From: Pleodorina starrii | Taxonomy: Eukaryota > Chlorophyta > Chlorophyceae > Chlamydomonadales > Volvocaceae | Assembly: GCA_030267565.1 (NCBI GenBank) | Contig: BRXU01000025.1 | Coordinates: 851,501 to 915,500, forward strand | Length of the DNA: 64,000 nucleotides | Direction: 5' to 3' | Shown: one piece after another, positions 28,910 through 51,113 of the stretch | How the letters are laid out: each line of letters starts with the position of its first letter | How positions within the stretch are numbered: the stretch's first letter is position 1 | Position numbers and translations under genes: made by a program | Notes under the pieces: generated by a model | Databases searched by the model: none | What the model was told of the DNA's origin: nothing | What the model saw: only the letters and a program-made list of their open reading frames with translations

Positions 28910-28996
28910 AGGACGTATAGTAATATGTAGTACTACATAGTACTATATATATAGTAAATAGTACTAGATTACTATTTACTATCTGGGGAACATTCT

Positions 28997-29306
28997 CTTG
29001 GGTAGGGGTCCCGTACACCCACCCGTTTTGGCTCAAAATAACACCATTGGAATCCTCTTTATTAATACTTCCTAAATATAATTTTACTTCCTGAAAGGGA
29101 GCGGTCTGGGGCACCTTACAGCCCCTTAAGAGTCGGACGCCCATGGGAGTCTCTTGGGTAGGGGACCCGTACACCCACCCGTTTTGGCTAAAAGTAACAC
29201 CATTGGAATCCTCTTTGTTAATGCTTCCTAAATATAATTTTACTTTCTGAAAGGGAGCCCTCTGGGGTACCTTAAGGCCCGTTTAGAGTCGGACGCCCTC
29301 GGGAGT
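28997..29306 (-). repeat. tandem duplication of a 155-bp unit
   Basis: Two head-to-tail copies (about 28997-29151 and 29152-29306), each beginning TCTTGGGTAGGGG and ending GGACGCCC(A/T)(T/C)GGGAG, are roughly 90% identical. The second copy meets the hAT-like ORF and supplies its last 23 or so codons, so the duplication marks the breakpoint of the truncated element. Confidence 0.85.
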
Positions 29307-29740
29307 CCCCCGTCCAGGATGACGGGGAGGACCGTCTGGCCGTCCGCCGCACGGCGCCGCTTCGTCACCGTCTGCTGGACCGCCTCACTGCCGGTCGTGG
29401 TGCTCGGTCCGGCAGCTGACCCTGTCGCGCTCGGCTGCTGGCTGAGCTGCTGCACCTGCTTCAGCTGCGCATATGACTTGCAAGCGCCCGATACCACGTG
29501 ATGATTGTTCGTATACGAGGGGTTCGAGGCGCTGAAGACGACGTCGCAGAAGATGCAGATCAGCTTGACCTCGCCGTCAACCCACTCTACTGTAAAATTC
29601 TCCCACAGGCTACCGGTCTTTGCGTTCGCCTTTTGGCTTTTCAGCTTATCATATTGCTTCCTACGCGCAGCAGCGACTTCAGCTGGCACATCAGGACCAG
29701 GTTGCAGGCCCCTTTTCGCTGGGTCTGCCCTCGGAGGCAT
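29240..29740 (-). CDS. BED zinc-finger N-terminus of a hAT transposase, truncated
   Basis: From the ATG at 29740 this frame gives 166 residues. After a Lys/Ala-rich start comes a BED-type finger: WENFTVEWVDGEVKLICIFC (C-x2-C), then NPSYTNNHHVVSGACKSY (H and C ligands). A Gln/Ser/Thr-rich linker and KRRRAADG follow. This is the usual N-terminus of hAT transposases, whose full length is about 600-800 residues. The dimerisation and DDE regions are absent. The frame instead runs into the neighbouring 155-bp repeat and stops after PRGLPFRK. The fragment could bind DNA but cannot transpose by itself. Confidence 0.6.
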   Translation of the reverse strand: MPPRADPAKRGLQPGPDVPAEVAAARRKQYDKLKSQKANAKTGSLWENFTVEWVDGEVKLICIFCDVVFSASNPSYTNNHHVVSGACKSYAQLKQVQQLSQQPSATGSAAGPSTTTGSEAVQQTVTKRRRAADGQTVLPVILDGGLPRASDSKRALRYPRGLPFRK

Positions 29741-38762: not shown

Positions 38763-41700
38763 TCAAATGAGCACCGCCGCCGCCGCCGACGCCCCCGCCG
38801 CCAGCTCCTTCTCCGCGGTGCGGGTGCGGCGCAGCAGCTCGTCCGAGTCGGGTCCCGGCGGCAGTTTGGTGGCCACCCAGGGGGCGAAGGAGGAGCGCAG
38901 GAACAGCAGCAGGCCGGAGATGAGCACAGACAGGGTCTGGGGAGGGGAGGGGTTTGGGTAGGGAAGGGAAGGAGACGGGAGGGGTAGGGACGTTTGGGGA
39001 GACGGGGGAGAGGAGGGGGGAAAGAGAGGAGGGGTGGAGAGGGGGCAGGAGAGGGGAACGGGCATTTCCTTGTCAGTTCGCTTCTTGTTGTGGTTGTGGT
39101 TGTGGTTGCGGTTGCGGTTGCGGTTGCAATTTGGTTTTACAGTTCGGTCTTGATCTCGTTGCTCGGAAGAACGGCAGGGTAGGGCAGGGGCGGGATAGGG
39201 GCCCGCGGGGGGAGAAGGCGGGGCTGCGAGGAGGGCTGAATGGCGGCTGGGAAGGGGCGGGGCGACGTGAGATGGCGGCGGAGGAGGAGCCTCGCTCGGC
39301 CGCAGCCGCAGCAAAAACGCGCATCACAGCTGCACGAAGACGACGACGGCGACGACAGCGACGGCGACGATGAAGACAAGCAAACGAGCGAGGGTGGATC
39401 AGAGACGCAGTCGCCCGGGGACGGCATTGGTGTGGTGTGTGCGTGCCGCGTACGACATGCCGTACCTTGGGCTGGGAGGCCACGCGCGCAAAGATCTGCT
39501 TGACGTCGCCTGTGGGGGCAGCAAAGGAGGACAAGGAAGGCAGGACAAGGAAGCAAGCGCGCGTGTGCGTGTGTGCGTGTGTGTGTGTGTGTGTCTCAGC
39601 ATTGCGGGAGATATGATGACAGAAGCAAAAACCCCAAGCCCCCATCTCGATGTGTGACCCGCGGGTCGGTCGGCCAACCCCACATTCCCCACATGCCGAT
39701 GCAGAAGTCCAACTGGCCACCCACCCAGCTACGCCACCCACCTAGCCAGTAGCCACCCACCCAGTCACCCCCCCCCCATACACACACACGCACACCAGCC
39801 TTTACCCCCGACACACACACACAACAAACACAAGCACAATCCACCCACCCCACCCACCCGCAGTCTTGCAGCTGGTCAGGAGGTGCTGCAGGAAGATGCG
39901 CCACGTCAGCAGCTGTTTGGCGCTCTGGTCGGACCAGTCAACCACCTGCAACGGTCGACGGTTGGAGGTTGTAGTCGACCCTGCAACTGTATTGGTTGGG
40001 CGCTGTATCCCCATCCCGCATCCCCTCCCCTCCCCTCTCCCACTCCTAAGGGCCCTCAAACCGAAACGATGAGCGGTTCAATACCCATATTCGACTGTTA
40101 TTTGCCTCTTGCCCAAAAGAACCCAAAAGGATACACTCCTTTTATAACACTCTTAAAAAAACACTCTTTATCGAAACACATTCAGCAGCCCCAGCAGGAC
40201 ACAACCAGAAGACACGGGGGTCTCGGGCGCATGGTACGGAACTCGTACAGGATCTTGTGCTGCCGTACCTTGAGCCACGACAGCGACATCGCGAAGCGCG
40301 CCACCAGCAGCGCCGCGAGCTTGGCCAGGTGGGTCAGCTGCCGTACATCCATGGACTGCCGTACCATGCCGTATGGTGCCGCCAGCCACGGTACAGAACC
40401 AAATGGGCGAAGACGGTGAAGCCGCAGGTATGGGGGAGGGTGACGTGTGTGGATGTGTGTGTGACCACAATGAGTCAGGTGCCCCATCCCCCATCCCCCA
40501 GAAGTAGCAGTAACCAGCCGCCACAACCCCTCCGAACCACCGGCGAAGGCCAATCCTACCTTCCACATAAGGCCAAGACCCGCCAAACCCACCCATTCGT
40601 ACTCCTCAAGTCCCGCGACCCCCCGGGGCCCAGCCCCCCCACCCAACCCCACCCGATCCCACCACCCGACCCCCTTGCACGTAAGGGCCCCCCACTCCCA
40701 CTCTCCCGCCCACACACACAGCCACACCGCCCTATGAATCCTATCAATCCTATCAATCCTATCCATTCCAACTACCCTACCCACCAAATGCACCCACCCC
40801 AGGTCCCACCCACCTCAACCTCCTTGAGCTTGTCCCACAGGCAGTACTGCATCGTCACGCGGTGCGCGCGACCCACCGACCCGCCACCGCCGCCGCCGCC
40901 GCCACCCTCGCCGCCGCCACAGCCGCCACACAGCCGCAGCGCCAGGAACGCATAGTAGGGGTTCCAGGCCTTCTCACCCAGGCAGCAGTCCACAAGCACC
41001 CGCACGATCTCCCGCCGTTGGTCGCCCTGTGTGGCAGGTGGGGGCAAAGGCCGAGAAGGGGGGGGGAGAACTCGGAAGGGTGCTGCGGCGGTGCTGGCTC
41101 GGCAAGAAACAGCCCAGTCCATTCAAGGGACGGTCAAGGGTGCTGGACCGACCCATGGGTCGCCGCCCTAGGTGCTGGACCGACACATGGGTCAACACCC
41201 ATGCTGCTAGAGCTAGACCGACCCATGGGTCGCCGCCCTAGGTGCTAGAGCTAGACCGACCCATGGGTCGCCGCCCTAGGTGCTGGACCGACCCATGGGT
41301 CGCCGCCCTAGGTGCTAGAGCTAGACCGACCCATGGGTCGCCGCCCTAGGTGCTGGACCGACCCAAGGGTCACCACCCTAGATGCTGGACCGACCCATGG
41401 GTCACCACCCTAGGTGCTGGACCAACCCATGGGTCGCCGCCCTAGGTGCTGGACCGACCCATGGGTCGCCGCCCTAGGTGCTGGACCGACCCATGGGTCA
41501 CCACCCTAGGTGCTGGACCGACCCATGGGTCGCCGCCCTAGGTGCTGGACCGACCCATGGGTCGCCGCCCTAGGTGCTGGACCGACCCATGGGTCACCAC
41601 CCTAGGTGCTGGACCGACCCATGGGTCGCCGCCCTAGGTGCTGGACCGACCCATGGGTCGCCGCCCTAGGTGCTGGACCGACCCATGGGTCGCCGCCCTA

Positions 41701-43973
41701 GGTGCTGGACCGACCCATGGGTCACCACCCTAGGTGCTAGAGCTAGACCGACCCATGGGTCGCCGCCCTAGGTGCTGGACCGATCCGTAGGTCACCGCTG
41801 CAAGGGGTCCTAGCGGCTCCAGTGGCAGCACAATACTTTAGCGTCAACACGACACACCACCCCCCACCTTGAGAGGCAATCGCAGCAGCTTCTCGTGGGC
41901 CTCCGCACAGTCCTGGGCAGCACCGTTGCCAGTTGGGGGGGGGAGGAGGAGGGGAGAGGGCGGCAGTATTAAAGACGAATCCGCATGGAAGGGACGGAGG
42001 CGACAGGGTAGGGTGTATAGCCTGTCGTACTGCAGCGCTGTACCGTAATACCCACCCATCGGTATGTGTTGGGGCGGCCCCCCCCCACCCCGTCGGCGCC
42101 AACCGAGATTACGAGAGCCGCCACCCCACTGCCCAAAACACACACAGCCGCCGTCCATCCGTCCCTCCTTTTCAGTGCGGTTCCACTTCCTTACCATCCC
42201 CCTTCCCGCCCCCCCTGTCGTGTCGCAACCCAGAAATGAACCACATGCCCCACCTCCGATCCCATAATGGCCACAAACACCGCCCGGCGCGCGTCCGTGT
42301 TCATCCGCTGCGCCGCCGCCAGCTGCAGAAGCTTGGCATTACTAGCGGCCGCCGCCGCCCCCGCCGCCGCGGCGGTGCCAGAGGCTCCGCTGCCGCCGCC
42401 ACCGTCCCCCGCCGCCGCCAGCATCAACGGATCGTCCAGCGCCTCCCCCGCCACCGGCATCCACCACATGCCTGCGTTTGCGGTTGTTAGTTGGGCGTTA
42501 GTCGTTAGGACGGTTGCGGCGGTTGGAGACGGTTGCGGGGCCACGTGTGGAGCCCAAACCCCGCATCAGCGTCACCATAGTTAACTGTTTGCGGTATTCT
42601 CGCCTTCTACCAAACTTCCATCATCACCTCGCCCAACGCACCCTTCCTGTCGTCGTTCCTTTCCCACCACCACCACCATTACCACCACCACCACCACCAC
42701 CACCTCCTCAACCTTGTCTTCATCTCCGCTGCGGTATCTTCTTTTTACTCCCCAACCACTCCGGGCCTCTCCCCCTCCCTCCAGGCCCGGCCCAACGCAC
42801 CCTTCTTGTTTGGCGCCAGCAGCTTCGGCCAGGTCAACCCCCGCAGACACACCTCCTCCACCCCGATCTGCTGCAGCCACTTGGCAACCGACGGCTGTAG
42901 CACCGCCAGCGCGCCGCCGCGGCGGCCGGCGCCGGCGGCGCCGCCGGCGGCGGCGCCGCCACCGGCCTTGCCCTTGCGCGTGGCGGTGCCGCCGAGGACG
43001 ACATTGGGCGCCGCCGCCGCCGCCGCCGCGGCGGCGGCGCCGCCGGCTGCTGACGTCTTGTTGTTCTTGATGTCGATGATTAGGTCCAGCATCAGCTGCG
43101 CTCGCCGGCTGAGTTGGCCTGAAGAGGTGGGGTCGAGTTGGGTCGAGTTGGGGTGAGGTTGAGTTGGGGTGAGGTCGAGTTGGGAAAAAGGAAACAAACG
43201 AAACACACAGCGCACAGCGGAGGGGTTTACGGACGGTGGCGACATTGGCGAATACGAAACCCACGGCCGGCCCGGCAACCAGTATCGCATGGGACATGGG
43301 ACAAAACCCTTTAAAACCTCTTAAAACCTCTAAAACCTCTAAAACCTCTGAAACTTCTGAAACCCTAAAACCCGCAGCTGCAGCTGCTGCGCTGCCTCAC
43401 CGTCTTTGCCCAGCTGTGCGGCCCGTTGGTGCACCCCCAGCACAAAGTCCTTCATGAGGGCGGGCTCGGCGTTGCGTAGCTGAAGACCCACCTGCGGAGG
43501 GCAACATCATTGGGGGGGGGGGCAGCGGCATCATTATTAGCATGATGGGGCGGAGGCATCATCATCATCAACGGGCGGCAGTCAATCGCCCCTTGCGTCA
43601 GAATGTAACAATGTCAGGACGTCAGGGCGTCACCACGCATTTGCAAAATTGCACGCCGCATGCCAGTCAGTCAGTCAGTCAGTCACCCAGGCATCGCGCC
43701 ATGCAAGTTGCAAACCCACGTTGCCTACATTGCGTATGTGTATGTGTATGCGGGTGGTGGCGGCAAACTGCAGTACAGTGCAGTACAGTATGACAGTACG
43801 GTGCACGTACAGCGTTGAGTAGCGTGACCATGGCCGACACATCTGCCTCCTGGAATCTGTCCTTGAGGGCGGCCATCAGGCTGTAGCACAGCCCGGGTCC
43901 CACCAATCCGGCGCTGTAGCAGTAGGCGAGCAGCGTGACCAGATTGGCCTGGGCCAGACTGCAGGAACAACAA

Positions 43974-44004
<31 letters not shown>

Positions 44005-47000
44005 GGCAGGGGGGGGGGTGGAAAGGGGGAGAAGTATATGAGGAAGAGGAGGAGGTGGAGGAGGAGGAGGAGGAGGAGGAGGGGAATTAGCTTGGCCCAC
44101 CTCCGTCCCTTTGCTGCGCCTCTCCTTTTTTGAACTTCCCTCCCTCCCTCCCTCCCTCCCTCCCTCGCCCCCCCCCACCCACCCCATACACCCAACACAC
44201 CCCACCCACCTGTCGCCGCTGTTCCTCGCCGCCTCCAGCCGCTCCGCCAGCGCCGCCAGAAAGGCCGCCGCCAGGTCCTGAGCATCCGCCTGCGCCGCCA
44301 CCGCCGACACGAACGCAGCGGCCACAGCCGCAAACTGATCCGAGGCGCGAGGACCCGACTCGGCGGCCTGGGGGGCAGCACGTGGGCAGGGCAGGGCGGG
44401 GGAGGGCGGCACGTGGGCAAGGCAGGACGGGGCAGGGCAGCAAGGACGGGGTAAACAACAAAGGGGCGAACCGCAGCGGGGGAGCCTGCCCTTCTGGCCA
44501 CCTGGCTCCACACAGCCGCCAACAGAGGTGTGTGGCTACAGCCCCACCACTACCAGCGAAGCCACACCACCCACCCACACGAACACACCACAAGCCAATG
44601 CCCCCGCCTCCGCCACCACCAAACCCTAAAACCCTAAACCCCACACCTTAACACCCGACACCCGTGCTCACCCCCAGGATCTGCGCTGCCACCGCCTCCG
44701 AAACCAGCCTCCGGCCCTGATTGCGGTACAGCTCCGCCACGTCACGTGAGATGGGCTGCAGGTTGGCCTCCGCGAGTCTTTGGAGGCAGAGGGCAGCCGG
44801 TGGTGGTGGGGGGGTGGGGGTGGTGGGGGTGGTGGGGATGGTGGTGGTGGTGGTGGTGGTGGGGGTGGTGGTGGGGGTGGCGGTGGTGGTGGTGGCGGTG
44901 GTGGTGGATGGGCCGGGGCATGGGGTCGGGTGTAAAAGGATGTACAGAAGTTGGCAAGGACGTGAACAGGCAAGGCAAAGGGAAGGGAAAGGGCGTAGTG
45001 GCTAGTGGGGATGGGCGCCCAGGACGTGAGAGGGGGTTGGGGCGTGGGAACCAGGGGGACCTGCCGCCATTCGGTTTTTCCGCCCACCTGTTGATAAGGC
45101 CCGTCACCCGCCTACCTGTTGATAAGGCCCGTCACCCGCCCACCTGTTGATAAGGCCCGTCACCCGCCCACCTGTTGATAAGGCCCGTCACCCGCCCACC
45201 TGTTGATAAGGCCCGTCACCCGCCCACCTGTTGATAAGGCCCGTCACCCGCCCACCTGTTGATAAGGCCCGTCACCCGCCTACCTGTTGATAAGGCCCGT
45301 CACCCGCCTACCTGTTGATAAGGCCCGTCACCCGCCCACCTGTTGATAAGGCCCGTCACCCGCCCACCTGTTGATAAGGCCCGTCACCCGCCTACCTGTT
45401 GATAAGGCCCGTCACCCGCCTACCTGTTGATAAGGCCCGTCACCCGCCTACCTGTTGATAAGGCCCGTCACCCGCCTACCTGTTGATAAGGCCCGTCACC
45501 CGCCCACCTGTTGATAAGGCCCGTCACCCGCCTACCTGTTGATAAGGCCCGTCACCCGCCCACCTGTTGATAAGGCCCGTCACCCGCCCACCTGTTGATA
45601 AGGCCCGTCACCCGCCTACCTGTTGATAAGGCCCGTCACCCGCCTACCTGTTGATAAGGCCCGTCACCCGCCCACCTGTTGATAAGGCCCGTCACCCGCC
45701 CACCTGTTGATAAGGCCCGTCACCCGCCTACCTGTTGATAAGGCCCGTCACCCGCCCACCTGTTGATAAGGCCCGTCACCCGCCCACCTGTTGATAAGGC
45801 CCGTCACCCGCCCACCTGTTGATAAGGCCCGTCACCCGCCTACCTGTTGATAAGGCCCGTCACCCGCCTACCTGTTGATAAGGCCCGTCACCCGCCCACC
45901 TGTTGATAAGGCCCGTCACCCGCCCACCTGTTGATAAGGCCCGTCACCCGCCTACCTGTTGATAAGGCCCGTCACCCGCCCACCTGTTGATAAGGCCCGT
46001 CACCCGCCCACCTGTTGATAAGGCCCGTCACCCGCCCGCCCACCTGTTGATAAGGCCCGTCACCCGCCTACCTGTTGATAAGGCCCGTCACCCGCCTACC
46101 TGTTGATAAGGCCCGTCACCCGCCGCTCCACCTGCACGCGGGCCGCATCCGCATCGGAGGCACCGCCGCCGCCGCCGCCAGCACCCGCAGCGGCAGCGGC
46201 AAGCTGTGCCCGCAGTGCCGGCGGCACGTACTTTTGCCCGGCACCTGCTGCACCTGCTGCTGCACCTGCACCTGCTGCTGCTGCTGCTGTCGTTCCACTC
46301 CTTGGGCCCCGGACATCCTCCTCCTCCTCGCCCTCGTCCTCCTCGCCCTCGTCCTCCTCCTCGTCCTCCTCCTCGCCATCCTCACTGCTGGTGCCCTGCT
46401 CCTGCTCCTCGTCGTCATTTCCGCTGTCATCGGCTTCGGCGTCGTCACCGTCATCCTCGCTCTCCCCCGCTCCTGCGTCCTCCGGATCCTCCTCCTCCCC
46501 GGCGCCCTCATCGATGTCCGAGTCCGACCCCATCAGGTGGCCGTACATGTCATAACCGTCCTCCTCCTCCTCCTCCTCGCCATCCTCCTCCTCCTCCTCC
46601 TCCGCCCCATCACCACTGTCCACGCCCATCTCGTCCTCCTCCTCGCCCTCCTCCTCGCCCTCCTCCTCCTCCCCCTCAGAGTCAGAGTCGGATCCAAAGC
46701 CGTACACGCCACGTTGCTCCTCCTCCAGCTCTTCATCGTCGTCCCCATCCTCCTCTCTGTCGCCCTCCCTTGGATTGATACCAAAGAACTCGAGCTCCTC
46801 ATCCGACTCGCGATCCAAAAGCTCCGCTGCCTTCCTCTCCGCCGCAGCCACGCTGGCAGGCTGCGAGCCGGCCTTCAGACCAGCCTTGGGGCCGCCGGCT
46901 ACTCCTGCTGCTGCTGAGAGAAGTGCACCGCCTGCGGCGCCGCCGCTGGATCCAGATCCGGATTTGGCCAGCAGGTCTGCAGCCTCCCGGCGGCCGTCTG

Positions 47001-48671
47001 GATCCAGATATTTGGGCAGCAAGGATCCGGATCCAGCTGACAGGTAGCCCATGAGCTTATCCATGCCGTCCAGGGCATCCTGTGCAACAGAAACCGTTGG
47101 ACGAGCGGCTGGCTTGCTGGCTGTTAAGGACAGCTAGGACGGCTAGGATAGCTGGGGGAGGGGGAGGGGCGCGGCCGGCGGTTTGGGGGTGTTGGTCGTA
47201 ATGGTGGCTTCTGCGCTCGGGTCGCCAGGGCAGAGGCGATGCCTGGCAGGGACCGAAACCTTTTTCCCCCGCTCTCGGAATATATCAGCTTAGGGCGGAT
47301 GCCGCAGCGCCACCTACCGACCCACCGACCCACCCGCTGCCGGTCCCGGCCCGGGTTCACCCGACCTCACCTTTTTGCTCTTGCCCAGCTTCTTTGCGAG
47401 TCGGGCCTGCAGACATACCAGCAGTGGGACAATGCAGTCCAGGGGGGTTACGGATGGTGGGTGCCGTTTTCTTAGCCGTCTGGGGCATGGCACACGACTA
47501 TCGGTGAGGGAGGCGGCCGACCCGTGGGTCATCGTTACTTCATCGGCTAAACACCCTCCCTGGAGCGCACGCACGCGCGCACCTGCAGTCGCAGCTCCTC
47601 CATGAACGCCTCCCGTCCGTTGCGGCTCTCCCAACCGTCAACCAACAGCTCATGGAACTTGGTTTTGGAGCTCGTGCCGGCCGAGCCGCCAGATCCAGAT
47701 CCAGATCCGGATCTTCTCCCGGATCCTGGCGCGGATCCGGATCCGGATCCTGCCTGTAGCCGCTGCTTCATGGCCGCCAGCGTCCGGGTCAGGCCGCCGC
47801 CGCTGCTGCCGCCGACCCGCGGGTCAGCGCCGCCGCCGCCGCCGGCGTCGGCGTCGCGTGACACGGCGCGCCGCTTGGCGGGGCGTTGCTCTCCGACGCC
47901 CTTGTCCTGTGCAGGAGCAGCGCAGGGGTCAAAAAGGAAGATATCGCAGCGAAGGGGCGGAGACAGCGTAAGCGAGGGGTAGCCGCCGAGCCGGCCGAGC
48001 CGCCGAGCCCAGCGGCCGAGCCGACCCAGCCCCAAGCGGACCCCAAGGGGGCCCCCTCTCAACGCGCTCCAGGGTGGGTGCGTCTCCCTGGGCGCCCCAG
48101 GCAGCCAGCTCACACACACAGGCCCCAGGAGCCACCCGCAGCTCACACGCAGGCCTGCTTCGACAGTGTGAAGCTGTCGGCAACCGGCAGCCGCAAGACG
48201 CGCCACAGCGACGCAGCATCGAAGACCGAAGAGCGAGCCATCCTAGGGGAGAAGGGGACCCACCTGACGGGATCGCGTGTCTCCGGTAGGCGCGTCCGTC
48301 CGCTCATCCGCGGCTCGCCGCTTGAGACTGCCGCCGCCGCCGCCAGCCGAGCCGGCGGCGGCGCCGCTGCCGCCGAACGAACGACCGCCGCGGCCGCCGG
48401 CGTCTCTCCCGCGGCCGCGTGTCCGACCTGGAAAGCCAGAGCCGCCGCCGCCGCCGCCGCGGCCTCTGTATCCGCGGGCCGGGCTGCCGCCGCCGCCGCC
48501 GCCAGAGCTTCCGTCTCCACCAAGCTCCCGTATCAACGCTGAGGGGAGTGCAGGGCCGCGCCCCTGCCGGCCGCCGCCGCGGCCACGACCATAGCCCCCT
48601 CCGTTGAACGAGGAGCGGCCGCGTTGGCCGCTTCTGCCGCGGCCACCGCCGCGTCTATCGCTGCCGTACAT
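38763..48671 (-). CDS. NOM1: nucleolar MIF4G-MA3 protein, NOM1/SGD1 family
   Basis: Sixteen exons give a closed frame of about 1,141 residues: 48671-48264, 47906-47583, 47406-47371, 47079-46100, 44777-44672, 44367-44210, 43958-43811, 43492-43401, 43118-42801, 42471-42254, 41912-41868, 41026-40814, 40355-40269, 39945-39861, 39509-39476, 38936-38763. The N-terminus is RG/RGG-rich and nucleolar-like. A long Glu/Asp/Ser region precedes QKYVPPALR, the family's hallmark. MIF4G repeats follow (GLINRLAEANLQPISRDVAE, NLVTLLAYCYSAGL). AQRMNTDARRAVFVAIMGSE is highly typical of NOM1, and an MA3 domain (REIVRVLVDCCLGEKAWNPY, MQYCLWDKLKEVE) comes next. NOM1/Sgd1 proteins serve small-subunit rRNA processing and recruit protein phosphatase 1 in animals. 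CWC22 shares MIF4G-MA3 but lacks the KYVPP motif. A TGTAA sits about 420 bases past the stop, close to the next gene's start. Confidence 0.88.
41128..41800 (-). repeat. 32-bp minisatellite with GACCCATGGGTC palindrome in NOM1 intron
   Basis: About 20 head-to-tail copies of a 32-bp unit (TGCTGGACCGACCCATGGGT, then CGCCGCCCTAGG) fill most of the intron between the exons at 41912-41868 and 41026-40814. A longer variant has CTAGAGCTAGACC in place of CTGGACC, and CGCCGCC alternates with CACCACC. Each unit contains two palindromes, CGACCCATGGGTCG and CCTAGG. The variants are interspersed, as expected from unequal exchange. Confidence 0.93.
43310..43373 (-). repeat. degenerate TTTTAGGG-type tract in NOM1 intron
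   Basis: In transcript sense this reads GGGTTTTAGGGTTTCAGAAG followed by several GAGGTTTTA units. It begins about 27 bases after the donor of the exon ending at 43401. TTTTAGGG is the Chlamydomonas telomere unit, here in a short internal, partly decayed tract. Confidence 0.75.
44619..44642 (-). repeat. TTTAGGGTTTTAGGG tract in NOM1 intron
   Basis: In transcript sense GGGTTTAGGGTTTTAGGG lies about 28 bases after the donor of the exon ending at 44672. It is one of several telomere-like tracts in a similar position. Confidence 0.85.
44805..44930 (+). repeat. GGTGGTGGGG-rich tract in NOM1 intron
   Basis: A run of GGTGGTGGTGGGGGTGG-type units just upstream, in transcript sense, of the exon starting at 44777. 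The transcript carries the C/A-rich strand, so G-quadruplex potential is on the template strand. Confidence 0.85.
45083..46123 (-). repeat. 28-bp minisatellite repeating an exon end and 5' splice site
   Basis: About 37 head-to-tail copies of a 28-bp unit occupy the 5' part of the NOM1 intron after the exon ending at 46100. In transcript sense each unit reads TGACGGGCCTTATCAACAG followed by GTRGGCGGG. The first copy is the actual end of the exon (codons for VTGLINR) with its donor GTAGGC, and every later copy repeats both. The only common variation is A or G in GTRGGC. One unit near 46030 has four extra bases. The acceptor CTCCAAAG before 44777 restores GLINRLAEANLQ only from a donor that adds no repeat unit. 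Confidence 0.95.
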
Positions 48672-51113
48672 GGTCCGTCAGCTCAGTTCGAGCTGTCAAA
48701 CCCTTGTCGTAACAAGACTAAAACATGAGCTACGTGTGGCTGGGCTAAAGGCAAATCGAGAAATTACCGCTGGCTGTGATGGTGTCGATTAAACGGAACC
48801 ACCCCGTTTGGCTTGTAAATTTTTTTGATTCCTGGCAAATGACACAAGATCGTGATCATAAAAAATGAAAATATTTGGTCTGCCTCCCTTTTTGCTAAAG
48901 CGCAGGACGTGCCGCCAACAGTCCAGCCGCCAGAGTGCTCTCTAAACTGTAAGGGGTCCACGATAATTCACAAAACGTTCAATTGTTGTGGGTGAATTTT
49001 ACTCTTCATTGTTCAAGAATATGAGCTGTAAGGACTCATTACTCACGCCGTACAGGAATTCGCATCGGCACCGTTCTGCCTGAATAATGCGTTTGGTGTT
49101 TACCTATTGCTCATAGCGCCTTGCCAACGACAACTTTATTTATGAACTGAATTGTGGTGAAATATTGGACTAGCGCAAACCGCTTAACTAGTGTTATAAG
49201 CTCTAACAGCACCGCGCAACGTACCATTAATCGTACAAAGCCTCATATCTAGAAGAGTTACATTTTCTTAATATTTACAGCTAAAGGCGCTCCATGAAGC
49301 TGGGTTGAACTTGCCCCAAGGAAAGCCTTTGACGACAAGCCAAACTTCAAGCTCAAGGTGCGGCAGCTTATGCATCGTCATGAGCATTTGTGGTAGACAC
49401 TGGTATGGACATGGTGTGAGCAGAGCGTTTCTGACAGACCACGAGGCCACATTCCTTTCGGTTATGCCCGTGGCTGATCCTGCGTGGGGGCGTCGCTAGC
49501 ATAGTTGATCTGCAATCTACATGTGTGAGTTCATCAAAACTGAGGCTGCTCGGTTACTGGTCCGGTTTCCAATCACTCGGGAGGCGGGCGGCACGGGGCG
49601 CTGCCGCAGAGGCAACGGCTTGCCTTGCTCAAGCATCGAACCCTTAAGCCGACTCTCGGCCAAAATGGGACAATGCCGGCAGAATTCTGCGCCGAGAGGT
49701 GCCGGTGCCGGCGCCGATAGCGGTTCGTTCCGTCATCGGAAGCCTCCGAGGATGTCGCCACCCTACCACGTGATGCCTCACTGCAACGGATTGGGCTTGT
49801 ACAAATCCGGGGCCTAGGAGCGACAAGTGCGGGCCACTCATACACTGGTTTCCGCGCATGCTTCCTTTACACCTTGATTTCTCCCCCACCTTGGGGCCCC
49901 CTCCCATACAAAACCTCGGCGTACATTGCTTACCCCAACCCACCCACCAGCTTGTGCCTCCTCCCACCCCCGTCGACCCCCCTCCCCGGCGAACAGGTGC
50001 CGCCTACACATCAATGTGCCGCAGCTCCGGACAGGCAGCAGCTGCGCTCCGTGACACCATCACAACCACCACAACCGCCACAACCGCTACAACCACCACC
50101 TCTCTGCCGTACCCCATAGCCCTGACCTTCGAGCCAGCGGCCACCGCCGCCGCTGCCCCTCCCGCCGCCACCGCCCCGGAGGCGGCGGCGGCCTGAGGCG
50201 CCGCCGCCGCCCCGGCCGTCAATGGGGCGAGCGCACGCCGTTCGTACCGTCGTCTACGGCAGCAGCAGCAGCAGCAGTAGAGGCATCAGCAGCGGCTGTG
50301 GAGAGGAGACGGCTGTAGCGGGCCGCCTGCGGACGTGAGGGACGTAGAGGCGCAAAATCCCAAGCGCCGGCTTTTTGCGGGCCTTATTGCTGAGGCTTTT
50401 TTTGGAGTGGGGAGTTTTCGAGGCGTTGCGAGGGTGACAGAAGCCGGAGAGCACTGAAGATCTGGTAGTGGCGACGGCCTGGTGGCGACGGCAGCAGCAG
50501 CAACAGCAACAGCAGGAGCAGAAGCAGAAACAGAGCTTCATCAGCGGCGTGACACGGGAGCAGTCAGTTGTGTGAGACGTGTGACGTCCAGTCCCCTCTG
50601 GGGGGCCATCCGGAGCTTTTATAAAAACCCAACCAACAAAAAAAACGTGTACGACACCCTGCCGTACTGTGAACGTACGGCAGTGCGTGCGCACATTCTT
50701 GTTGACAATATTCGCCTGCGCGTGAGGTGGTCGTACTGCGGAGGCAGTTGGCGACAGCTGCGGGCCGCACGTGTGGTACATCGCGCGCCGGTTGGGTTTT
50801 GGGTGCCGTACCGTACTGTGCCGTACCTCACACGCGCGGGCTCTTCCCGAGCCGGCGACGAACACAGCGCGGGGCAGCGCCGGAGGCGACGACAGGTGGA
50901 CGGAAGACATCGGCAGGAGTGTACGGACGTAGTAGCAGCGGAGTACGGCAACAGAGCGCAGTGGGGGTCGGGCGGCAGCAGCAGCAGCTCTCCTCGCCCC
51001 GGCGCGCGTGTGTGTGTGACCGACCGAGGGAACCTCGGCCGTTGTCGGTTGTTGGTTGAGGCTAACAGTAGAAAGCAGCGAGACGGCGACCCGGCGGCAT
51101 TGACGACGGAGCC
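48672..51113. other. divergent intergenic region between NOM1 and EF-hand gene
   Basis: NOM1 starts leftward at 48671 and the EF-hand gene starts rightward at 51114, so both promoters should lie here. 48700-49300 is AT-richer. 49990-50220 is CAC/GCC-rich and 50250-50520 has CAG/CAA runs. Several frames are open but none has a motif or linked exons, so I call no gene. 50640-51110 probably holds the EF-hand gene's 5' untranslated region. Confidence 0.45.

What the first reader, a model, noticed from the sequence alone, without database searches (positions are those of the whole stretch)
45083..46123. An intronic array of about 37 repeated 5' splice sites
Each 28-bp unit duplicates the last 19 bases of the NOM1 exon together with its donor (ATCAACAG|GTRGGC). 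The pre-mRNA therefore presents about 37 near-equal donors in a row. Only the first keeps the frame: 28 is not a multiple of three, and a TGA soon follows. Purity is high, with only A/G variation in the donor. This could tune NOM1 splicing, create decoy U1 sites or simply be a young expansion seeded at the exon edge.
Basis: seen in the sequence. Interest (0 to 1): 0.8.

Follow-up and report, generated by a model that had tools for sequence, protein, structure and literature searches.

The report
Thirty-seven splice donors in a row
In a green alga, the end of one exon of the NOM1 gene has been copied together with its splice donor into a row of 37 near-identical donors of which only the first gives a working protein, and other genes of the same genome show the same layout, so nature has set up a test of how cells choose between identical splice sites.

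Summary
Confirmed and extended. The window is Pleodorina starrii; the gene is NOM1 on the minus strand. Intron 4 (46099-44778) begins with a minisatellite: 37 AACAG|GTR donors, 36 units (35 of 28 bp, one of 32), each GTR plus the last 25 exon bases (not 19). The deposited protein and seven green-algal homologues run gap-free across the junction, so in net the whole array is removed. Donors 2-37 all meet a TAG one base into the array. Without the array the intron would be 310 nt, like its neighbours. A GGCGG repeat 28 bp apart could have seeded it.

It is not unique. Three motif searches listed 32 loci; read by eye, 11 of 32 are exon-edge donor arrays (alanyl-tRNA synthetase with 54 donors, ORC1, two dynein heavy chains, xanthine dehydrogenase, others).

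Most likely: a largely neutral minisatellite, tolerated because the upstream-most donor wins or because wrong products are spliced again (every unit is GT...AG). The human CBS 31-bp VNTR has the same architecture, so the kind is known; recurrence in one genome, and the test of donor choice it offers, look new. No RNA could be examined: donor use, length variation and function are untested.

The parts
46100..47079 (-). NOM1 exon 4 (980 nt), ending ...GGCCTTATCAACAG
   Evidence: gene model, open frame, agrees with deposited protein P0001
45088..46099 (-). 36 tandem units (1012 bp) between donor 1 (GT at 46099) and donor 37 (GT at 45087): 35 of 28 bp, one of 32 bp; each GTR + 25 exon bases
   Evidence: TRF span including the exon copy and the partial last copy 45080-46124
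46012..46043 (-). the single 32-bp unit (4-bp insertion), third unit from the exon
46120..46124 (-). GGCGG in the exon, one side of the 5-bp direct repeat proposed as seed
   Evidence: 25 exon + 8 intron bases fit a 28-bp unit, overlap 5; seed role inferred
45080..45084 (-). GGCGG in the intron just after the last donor, other side of the direct repeat
   Evidence: seed role inferred
44778..45087 (-). rest of intron 4 beyond the array (310 nt) with the acceptor ...CTCCAAAG
44672..44777 (-). NOM1 exon 5, starting ACTCGCGGAGGCC; joins donor 1 as ..GLINR|LAEAN..
40814..48671 (-). NOM1 orthologue, exons 1-12 of the model (further exons lie below 40814)
   Evidence: MIF4G and MA3 in Pfam; model; P0001

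Best explanation
A minisatellite grew from a tandem duplication across the exon 4/intron 4 border of NOM1, probably by slippage between two GGCGG pentamers 28 bp apart, and expanded to 37 donors. It is tolerated because splicing in net joins the true exon end to exon 5, most simply because the upstream-most donor (first transcribed, nearest to the acceptor that begins the exon) is committed first. The array is largely neutral, perhaps with a cost in stop-bearing transcripts. Shown: anatomy, reading frames, conserved protein across the junction, the same layout elsewhere in the genome. Inferred: seed event, which donor is used, neutrality.
For: Units are exact copies of the exon edge plus GTR. 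Donor 1 gives the deposited protein, gap-free in all 8 green-algal proteins aligned; donors 2-37 give a TAG at once. The array only adds length: 310 nt remain without it, and 9 of the 11 modelled introns are 176-357 nt, the two long ones being those with minisatellites. Donor scores equal those of the gene's other donors: GTG units 9.0, GTA units 7.0 bits, against -0.2 to 10.4 for 11 others left out one at a time. 11 of 32 loci read elsewhere show the same layout. In 8 of 9 arrays with the next exon in hand, NOM1 among them, the last donor would bring a stop or frameshift.
Against: No RNA was seen; the deposited model was made with RNA reads (PMC10256686, passages), but whether reads cross this junction is unknown. 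In human data near-equal donors follow the downstream choice under intron definition (PMC9225289, section read), which would be fatal here. Donors may not attract arrays: the loose and the CAGGTGCG motifs show no excess over their reversed controls. No relative's DNA was available to test the seed.
Confidence: 0.7

Rival explanations
1. Repair by re-splicing: later donors are used often, and donor 1 then removes the retained units at the CAG that ends the last of them. Every unit is GT...AG, so the final mRNA is the same. The units work as dual-specific splice sites.
For: Every unit begins GT and ends CAG. As acceptor a unit scores 3.0 bits, above 4 of 11 of the gene's own acceptors left out one at a time. 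[quoted passage not shown]
Against: Poor pyrimidine tract; 30 of 450 other AGs in the gene score as high. No RNA evidence. The acceptor in use, by the protein, lies 310 nt beyond the array.
Confidence: 0.17
2. The array tunes NOM1: use of later donors makes stop-bearing transcripts or U1 decoys, and array length sets the output, as proposed by the first reader.
For: All later donors give the same immediate stop. In human CBS more 31-bp repeats go with lower activity (PMC5188458, passage).
Against: The layout recurs in unrelated genes with different units and 3 to 54 donors, in some of which later donors are partly harmless (17 of 53 in AlaRS). No sign of a fixed length or structure.
Confidence: 0.09
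3. Assembly or polishing artefact.
For: Tandem arrays are prone to mis-assembly in general (recalled); raw reads were not seen.
Against: High-fidelity long reads (PMC10256686, passages); interspersed A/G variants and a 32-bp unit; array inside a 1.78 Mb contig.
Confidence: 0.03

Closest known systems
Human CBS 31-bp VNTR at the exon 13/intron 13 border, c.1444_1467+7(16_21) (PMC2630376 and PMC5188458, passages; original paper not held)
   Same: By its name each unit holds 24 exon and 7 intron bases, hence the donor; unit length not a multiple of three; many copies
   Different: 16-21 copies in one human gene, with length variation and an activity effect on record; here 37 copies of 28 bp, 25 exon + 3 intron bases, variation and effect unknown, and the layout recurs in the genome
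Dual-specific splice-site arrays, UBC and VCX3A (PMC10809524, abstract, passages, two sections)
   Same: Tandem units each holding AG|GT
   Different: There the units are coding, a multiple of three in UBC, and introns are multiples of the unit; here the unit is 28 bp, not coding, and the acceptor in use lies outside the array
Intron gain by tandem duplication (PMC4974935, abstract and introduction; PMC3629103, passages)
   Same: Tandem duplication with splice-site motifs; potato case crosses an exon/intron border; fission yeast case has 24-nt repeats (its own text gives AGGC and calls one intron's true extent unsettled)
   Different: Here an intron is lengthened; no new intron need be assumed

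Membership tests
Exon-edge VNTR of the CBS type | Unit spans exon end and donor | tested here: met
   25 exon bases + GTR per unit
Exon-edge VNTR of the CBS type | Copy number varies between individuals | not testable with these tools
   only one strain's DNA was available
Exon-edge VNTR of the CBS type | Copy number affects splicing or activity | not testable with these tools
   no RNA or protein data
Dual-specific splice-site array (UBC/VCX3A) | AG|GT in every unit | tested here: met
   37 CAACAG|GT
Dual-specific splice-site array (UBC/VCX3A) | Intron in use is a whole multiple of the unit | tested here: not met
   the intron implied by the deposited protein ends 310 nt beyond the array, 1322 nt in all
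Dual-specific splice-site array (UBC/VCX3A) | Units are used as acceptors | not testable with these tools
   acceptor score 3.0 bits is only moderate; needs RNA
New intron by tandem duplication (Rogers model) | Intron consists of the duplicated segment | tested here: not met
   310 nt of unique intron with its own acceptor remain; whether relatives have the intron could not be tested
Introner or other mobile element | Similar copies elsewhere in the genome | tested here: not met
   37 of 37 matches with up to 3 mismatches lie in this array

The most novel reading that the evidence does not exclude
P. starrii carries tens of genes whose 5' splice site heads an expanding minisatellite, so that its spliceosome must reliably take the upstream-most of up to 54 locally near-identical donors, or repair the choice by splicing again. 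Donor-crossing duplications would then be a general and nearly free way for introns to grow in these algae, and a ready series of tests of donor choice with local sequence held constant.
Probability: 0.5. Interest if true: 0.75.

Novelty: new member of a known kind. Interest (0 to 1): 0.58.

Why it matters
How a cell chooses between identical donors is an old question. Here the 37 donors share the 25 bases upstream, and donors 1-36 also about a unit downstream apart from A/G at +3 and one insertion; the choice decides between a full and a truncated conserved protein; and other genes of the genome offer the same test with 3 to 54 donors. One long-read RNA data set could tell upstream choice, downstream choice and re-splicing apart. 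It also shows a way for introns to lengthen without touching the protein.

Tried and rejected
Special RNA structure: the 311 nt from 46140 to 45830 fold no better than shuffles (z 1.06; 85 of 100 shuffles as stable). Known RNA family in 40000-49000: none at gathering score. Higher-order repeat: the A/G order holds a repeated run of 12, reached by 151 of 5000 shuffles, weak support for block duplication. Mobile element: rejected. The second NOM1 minisatellite (41139-41798) as the same kind: rejected by reading, it lies inside intron 11 and starts some 70 bases from that exon's end.

Excess of donor-bearing arrays over reversed motifs: mixed. CAGGTRNG 1044 matches against 1220; CAGGTGAG 76 against 20, by my count 8 loci against 3; CAGGTGCG 26 against 212. 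In 255.5 kb around the gene, 23 arrays of period 14 or more and at least 4 copies were found; the NOM1 one is the only one I recognised at an exon donor, but I read the surroundings of only some of them. Random placement would put about 28/(310+28), 8%, of such intronic arrays across a donor (my arithmetic). So I do not claim that donors attract arrays.

Not reached: AAGGTGAG arrays. Not tested: arrays at acceptor edges. Searches in which a report of this kind in volvocine algae might have appeared; none of the listed titles or abstract starts describes one.

Full report
What is there. The window is bases 851501-915500 of contig C25 (1,777,229 bases) of a 136.06 Mb genome in 95 contigs. The published assembly of Pleodorina starrii NIES-4479 has 95 contigs and 136.1 Mb (PMC10256686, passages), and the deposited protein PLESTB_001421700 of that species sits on a contig of the same length. 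The gene is on the minus strand and encodes MIF4G (E 4.3e-14) and MA3 (E 7.8e-9) domains. My 12-exon model is 100% identical to the deposited protein over the 260 residues compared.

The array. Intron 4 runs from 46099 to 44778. On the minus strand exon 4 ends GGCGGGTGACGGGCCTTATCAACAG and the intron begins with 36 units GTRGGCGGGTGACGGGCCTTATCAACAG, 35 of 28 bp and one of 32 bp. With the exon's own there are 37 donors. Each unit holds the last 25 exon bases and only GTR from the intron. R is A 16 times and G 21 times. After the last donor, 8 more bases fit the GTG unit, so exon and intron share GGCGG one unit apart (25 + 8 - 28 = 5). Slippage between these is my inferred seed. The gene in L037 gives the same 5-base overlap (26 + 23 - 44); for the other three arrays of that call the ungapped count was negative, so they do not support it. 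For NOM1 itself the script printed -1, because it compared with a GTA unit.

Consequence. Donor 1 joined to exon 5 gives ..VERRVTGLINR|LAEANLQ... All 8 proteins aligned (P. starrii, Volvox carteri, V. africanus, Chlamydomonas schloesseri, Gonium pectorale, Raphidocelis subcapitata, Parachlorella kessleri, Elliptochloris bilobata) are gap-free through GL-x-NRLAE. Donors 2-37 all meet a TAG one base into the array. So in net the whole array is removed, or no full protein would be made. The published annotation used RNA reads (passages), but I could not see whether reads cover this junction. Without the array the intron would be 310 nt. Of 11 modelled introns 9 are 176-357 nt; the two long ones (1322, 841) hold the minisatellites.

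Are the sites credible? With matrices from the gene's 11 other donors and from all 11 acceptors, GTG units score 9.0 and GTA units 7.0 bits as donors (others, left out one at a time, -0.2 to 10.4), and units score 3.0 as acceptors (above 4 of 11 of the gene's own), while 30 of 450 other AGs score as high. The matrices are small and the scores rough. Each unit is a GT...AG module that may act both ways.

Not unique. I searched the genome for three copies of a donor motif at short spacing. CAGGTRNG: 1044 matches; only the first 100 rows, all on C1 and C2, were listed, which I group into 19 loci; all 19 were fetched and read by eye. In 4 of 19 an open exon ends exactly at the first donor on the sense strand: L037 (3 donors), L039 (ORC1, 4), L040 (6) and L048/L050 (alanyl-tRNA synthetase, 54 donors; units of 19 and 20 and one of 58). 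CAGGTGAG: 76 matches in 8 loci, all fetched; 6 of 8: L059 and L060 (dynein heavy chains), L061 (xanthine dehydrogenase), L062 (ubiquitin-like domain, Pfam E 4.6e-5; TBCE by recall), L063 and L064 (unnamed). CAGGTGCG: 26 matches in 5 loci, all fetched; 1 of 5: L067 (DEAH helicase by recall, unit 45 bp). That is 11 of 32 loci, 12 genes with NOM1. For L063, L064 and L067 the next exon was not in hand, so these three are less certain.

Names and junctions. Against solved structures: ORC1 E 1.6e-24, AlaRS 5.9e-47, dynein heavy chains 3.5e-56 (L060) and 3.4e-77 (L059), xanthine dehydrogenase 4.2e-27. In the one alignment shown for each, the chain is continuous at the donor-1 junction; ORC1 has a one-residue gap a few residues upstream. 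L037 had no match there or in Pfam, L040 only weak ones to designed proteins and none in Pfam, L063 and L064 none in Pfam.

What the last donor would do. In one search nine arrays have their next exon: NOM1, AlaRS, ORC1, L037, L040, L059, L060, L061, L062. The last donor would bring a stop or frameshift in 8 of 9; in ORC1 it would add 33 residues in frame. Some middle donors are harmless by this count, as 17 of 53 in AlaRS and 3 of 3 in ORC1.

Controls. The reversed motif gives 1220 matches for the loose pattern, more than the donor motif, 20 in 3 loci for CAGGTGAG and 212 for CAGGTGCG. Only CAGGTGAG shows an excess, about the size of its 6 exon-edge arrays. A motif search for donors also favours real donors by design. 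In 255.5 kb around the gene NOM1 is the only one of 23 arrays that I recognised at an exon donor, though not all 23 were read. The data fit arrays that arise anywhere and are tolerated at donors.

Mechanism. In human data near-equal donors follow the nearest partner, downstream under intron definition and upstream under exon definition (PMC9225289, abstract and one section). Here the donor nearest the acceptor would leave a 310-nt intron but destroy the frame. So the alga chooses upstream, or repairs by splicing again; both give the same mRNA. I favour upstream choice because it needs no weak acceptor.

Known kind. The human CBS 31-bp VNTR, c.1444_1467+7(16_21), has by its name 24 exon and 7 intron bases per unit (PMC2630376, passages), and more repeats go with lower activity (PMC5188458, passage). 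Dual-specific arrays in UBC and VCX3A (PMC10809524) and intron gain from tandem repeats (PMC4974935, PMC3629103) are nearest in mechanism. So the NOM1 array is a new member of a known kind; recurrence across one genome is what I did not see described in searches.

Noticed in passing
window 41139-41798: Second minisatellite in the same gene, 32-bp unit, about 20 copies, inside intron 11; it does not copy an exon edge.
   Followed up: partly
L050 (C2:6045000-6046960): Alanyl-tRNA synthetase gene with 54 donors in units of 19 and 20 bp (one 58), larger in donor number than NOM1; the two unit lengths differ by one G and alternate irregularly.
   Followed up: partly
L042, L045, L049, L051, L053, L054, L056: Arrays that, read on the other strand, seem to lie just before an acceptor; a possible acceptor-side counterpart, judged by eye only.
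   Followed up: no
L024:8614-9406: 21-bp repeat, about 38 copies, stop-free looking in one frame, with CCAG|GTG in most units; could be a coding array with a donor motif in each unit.
   Followed up: no
window 28994-29307: 156-bp unit present twice in tandem at 90% matches.
   Followed up: no
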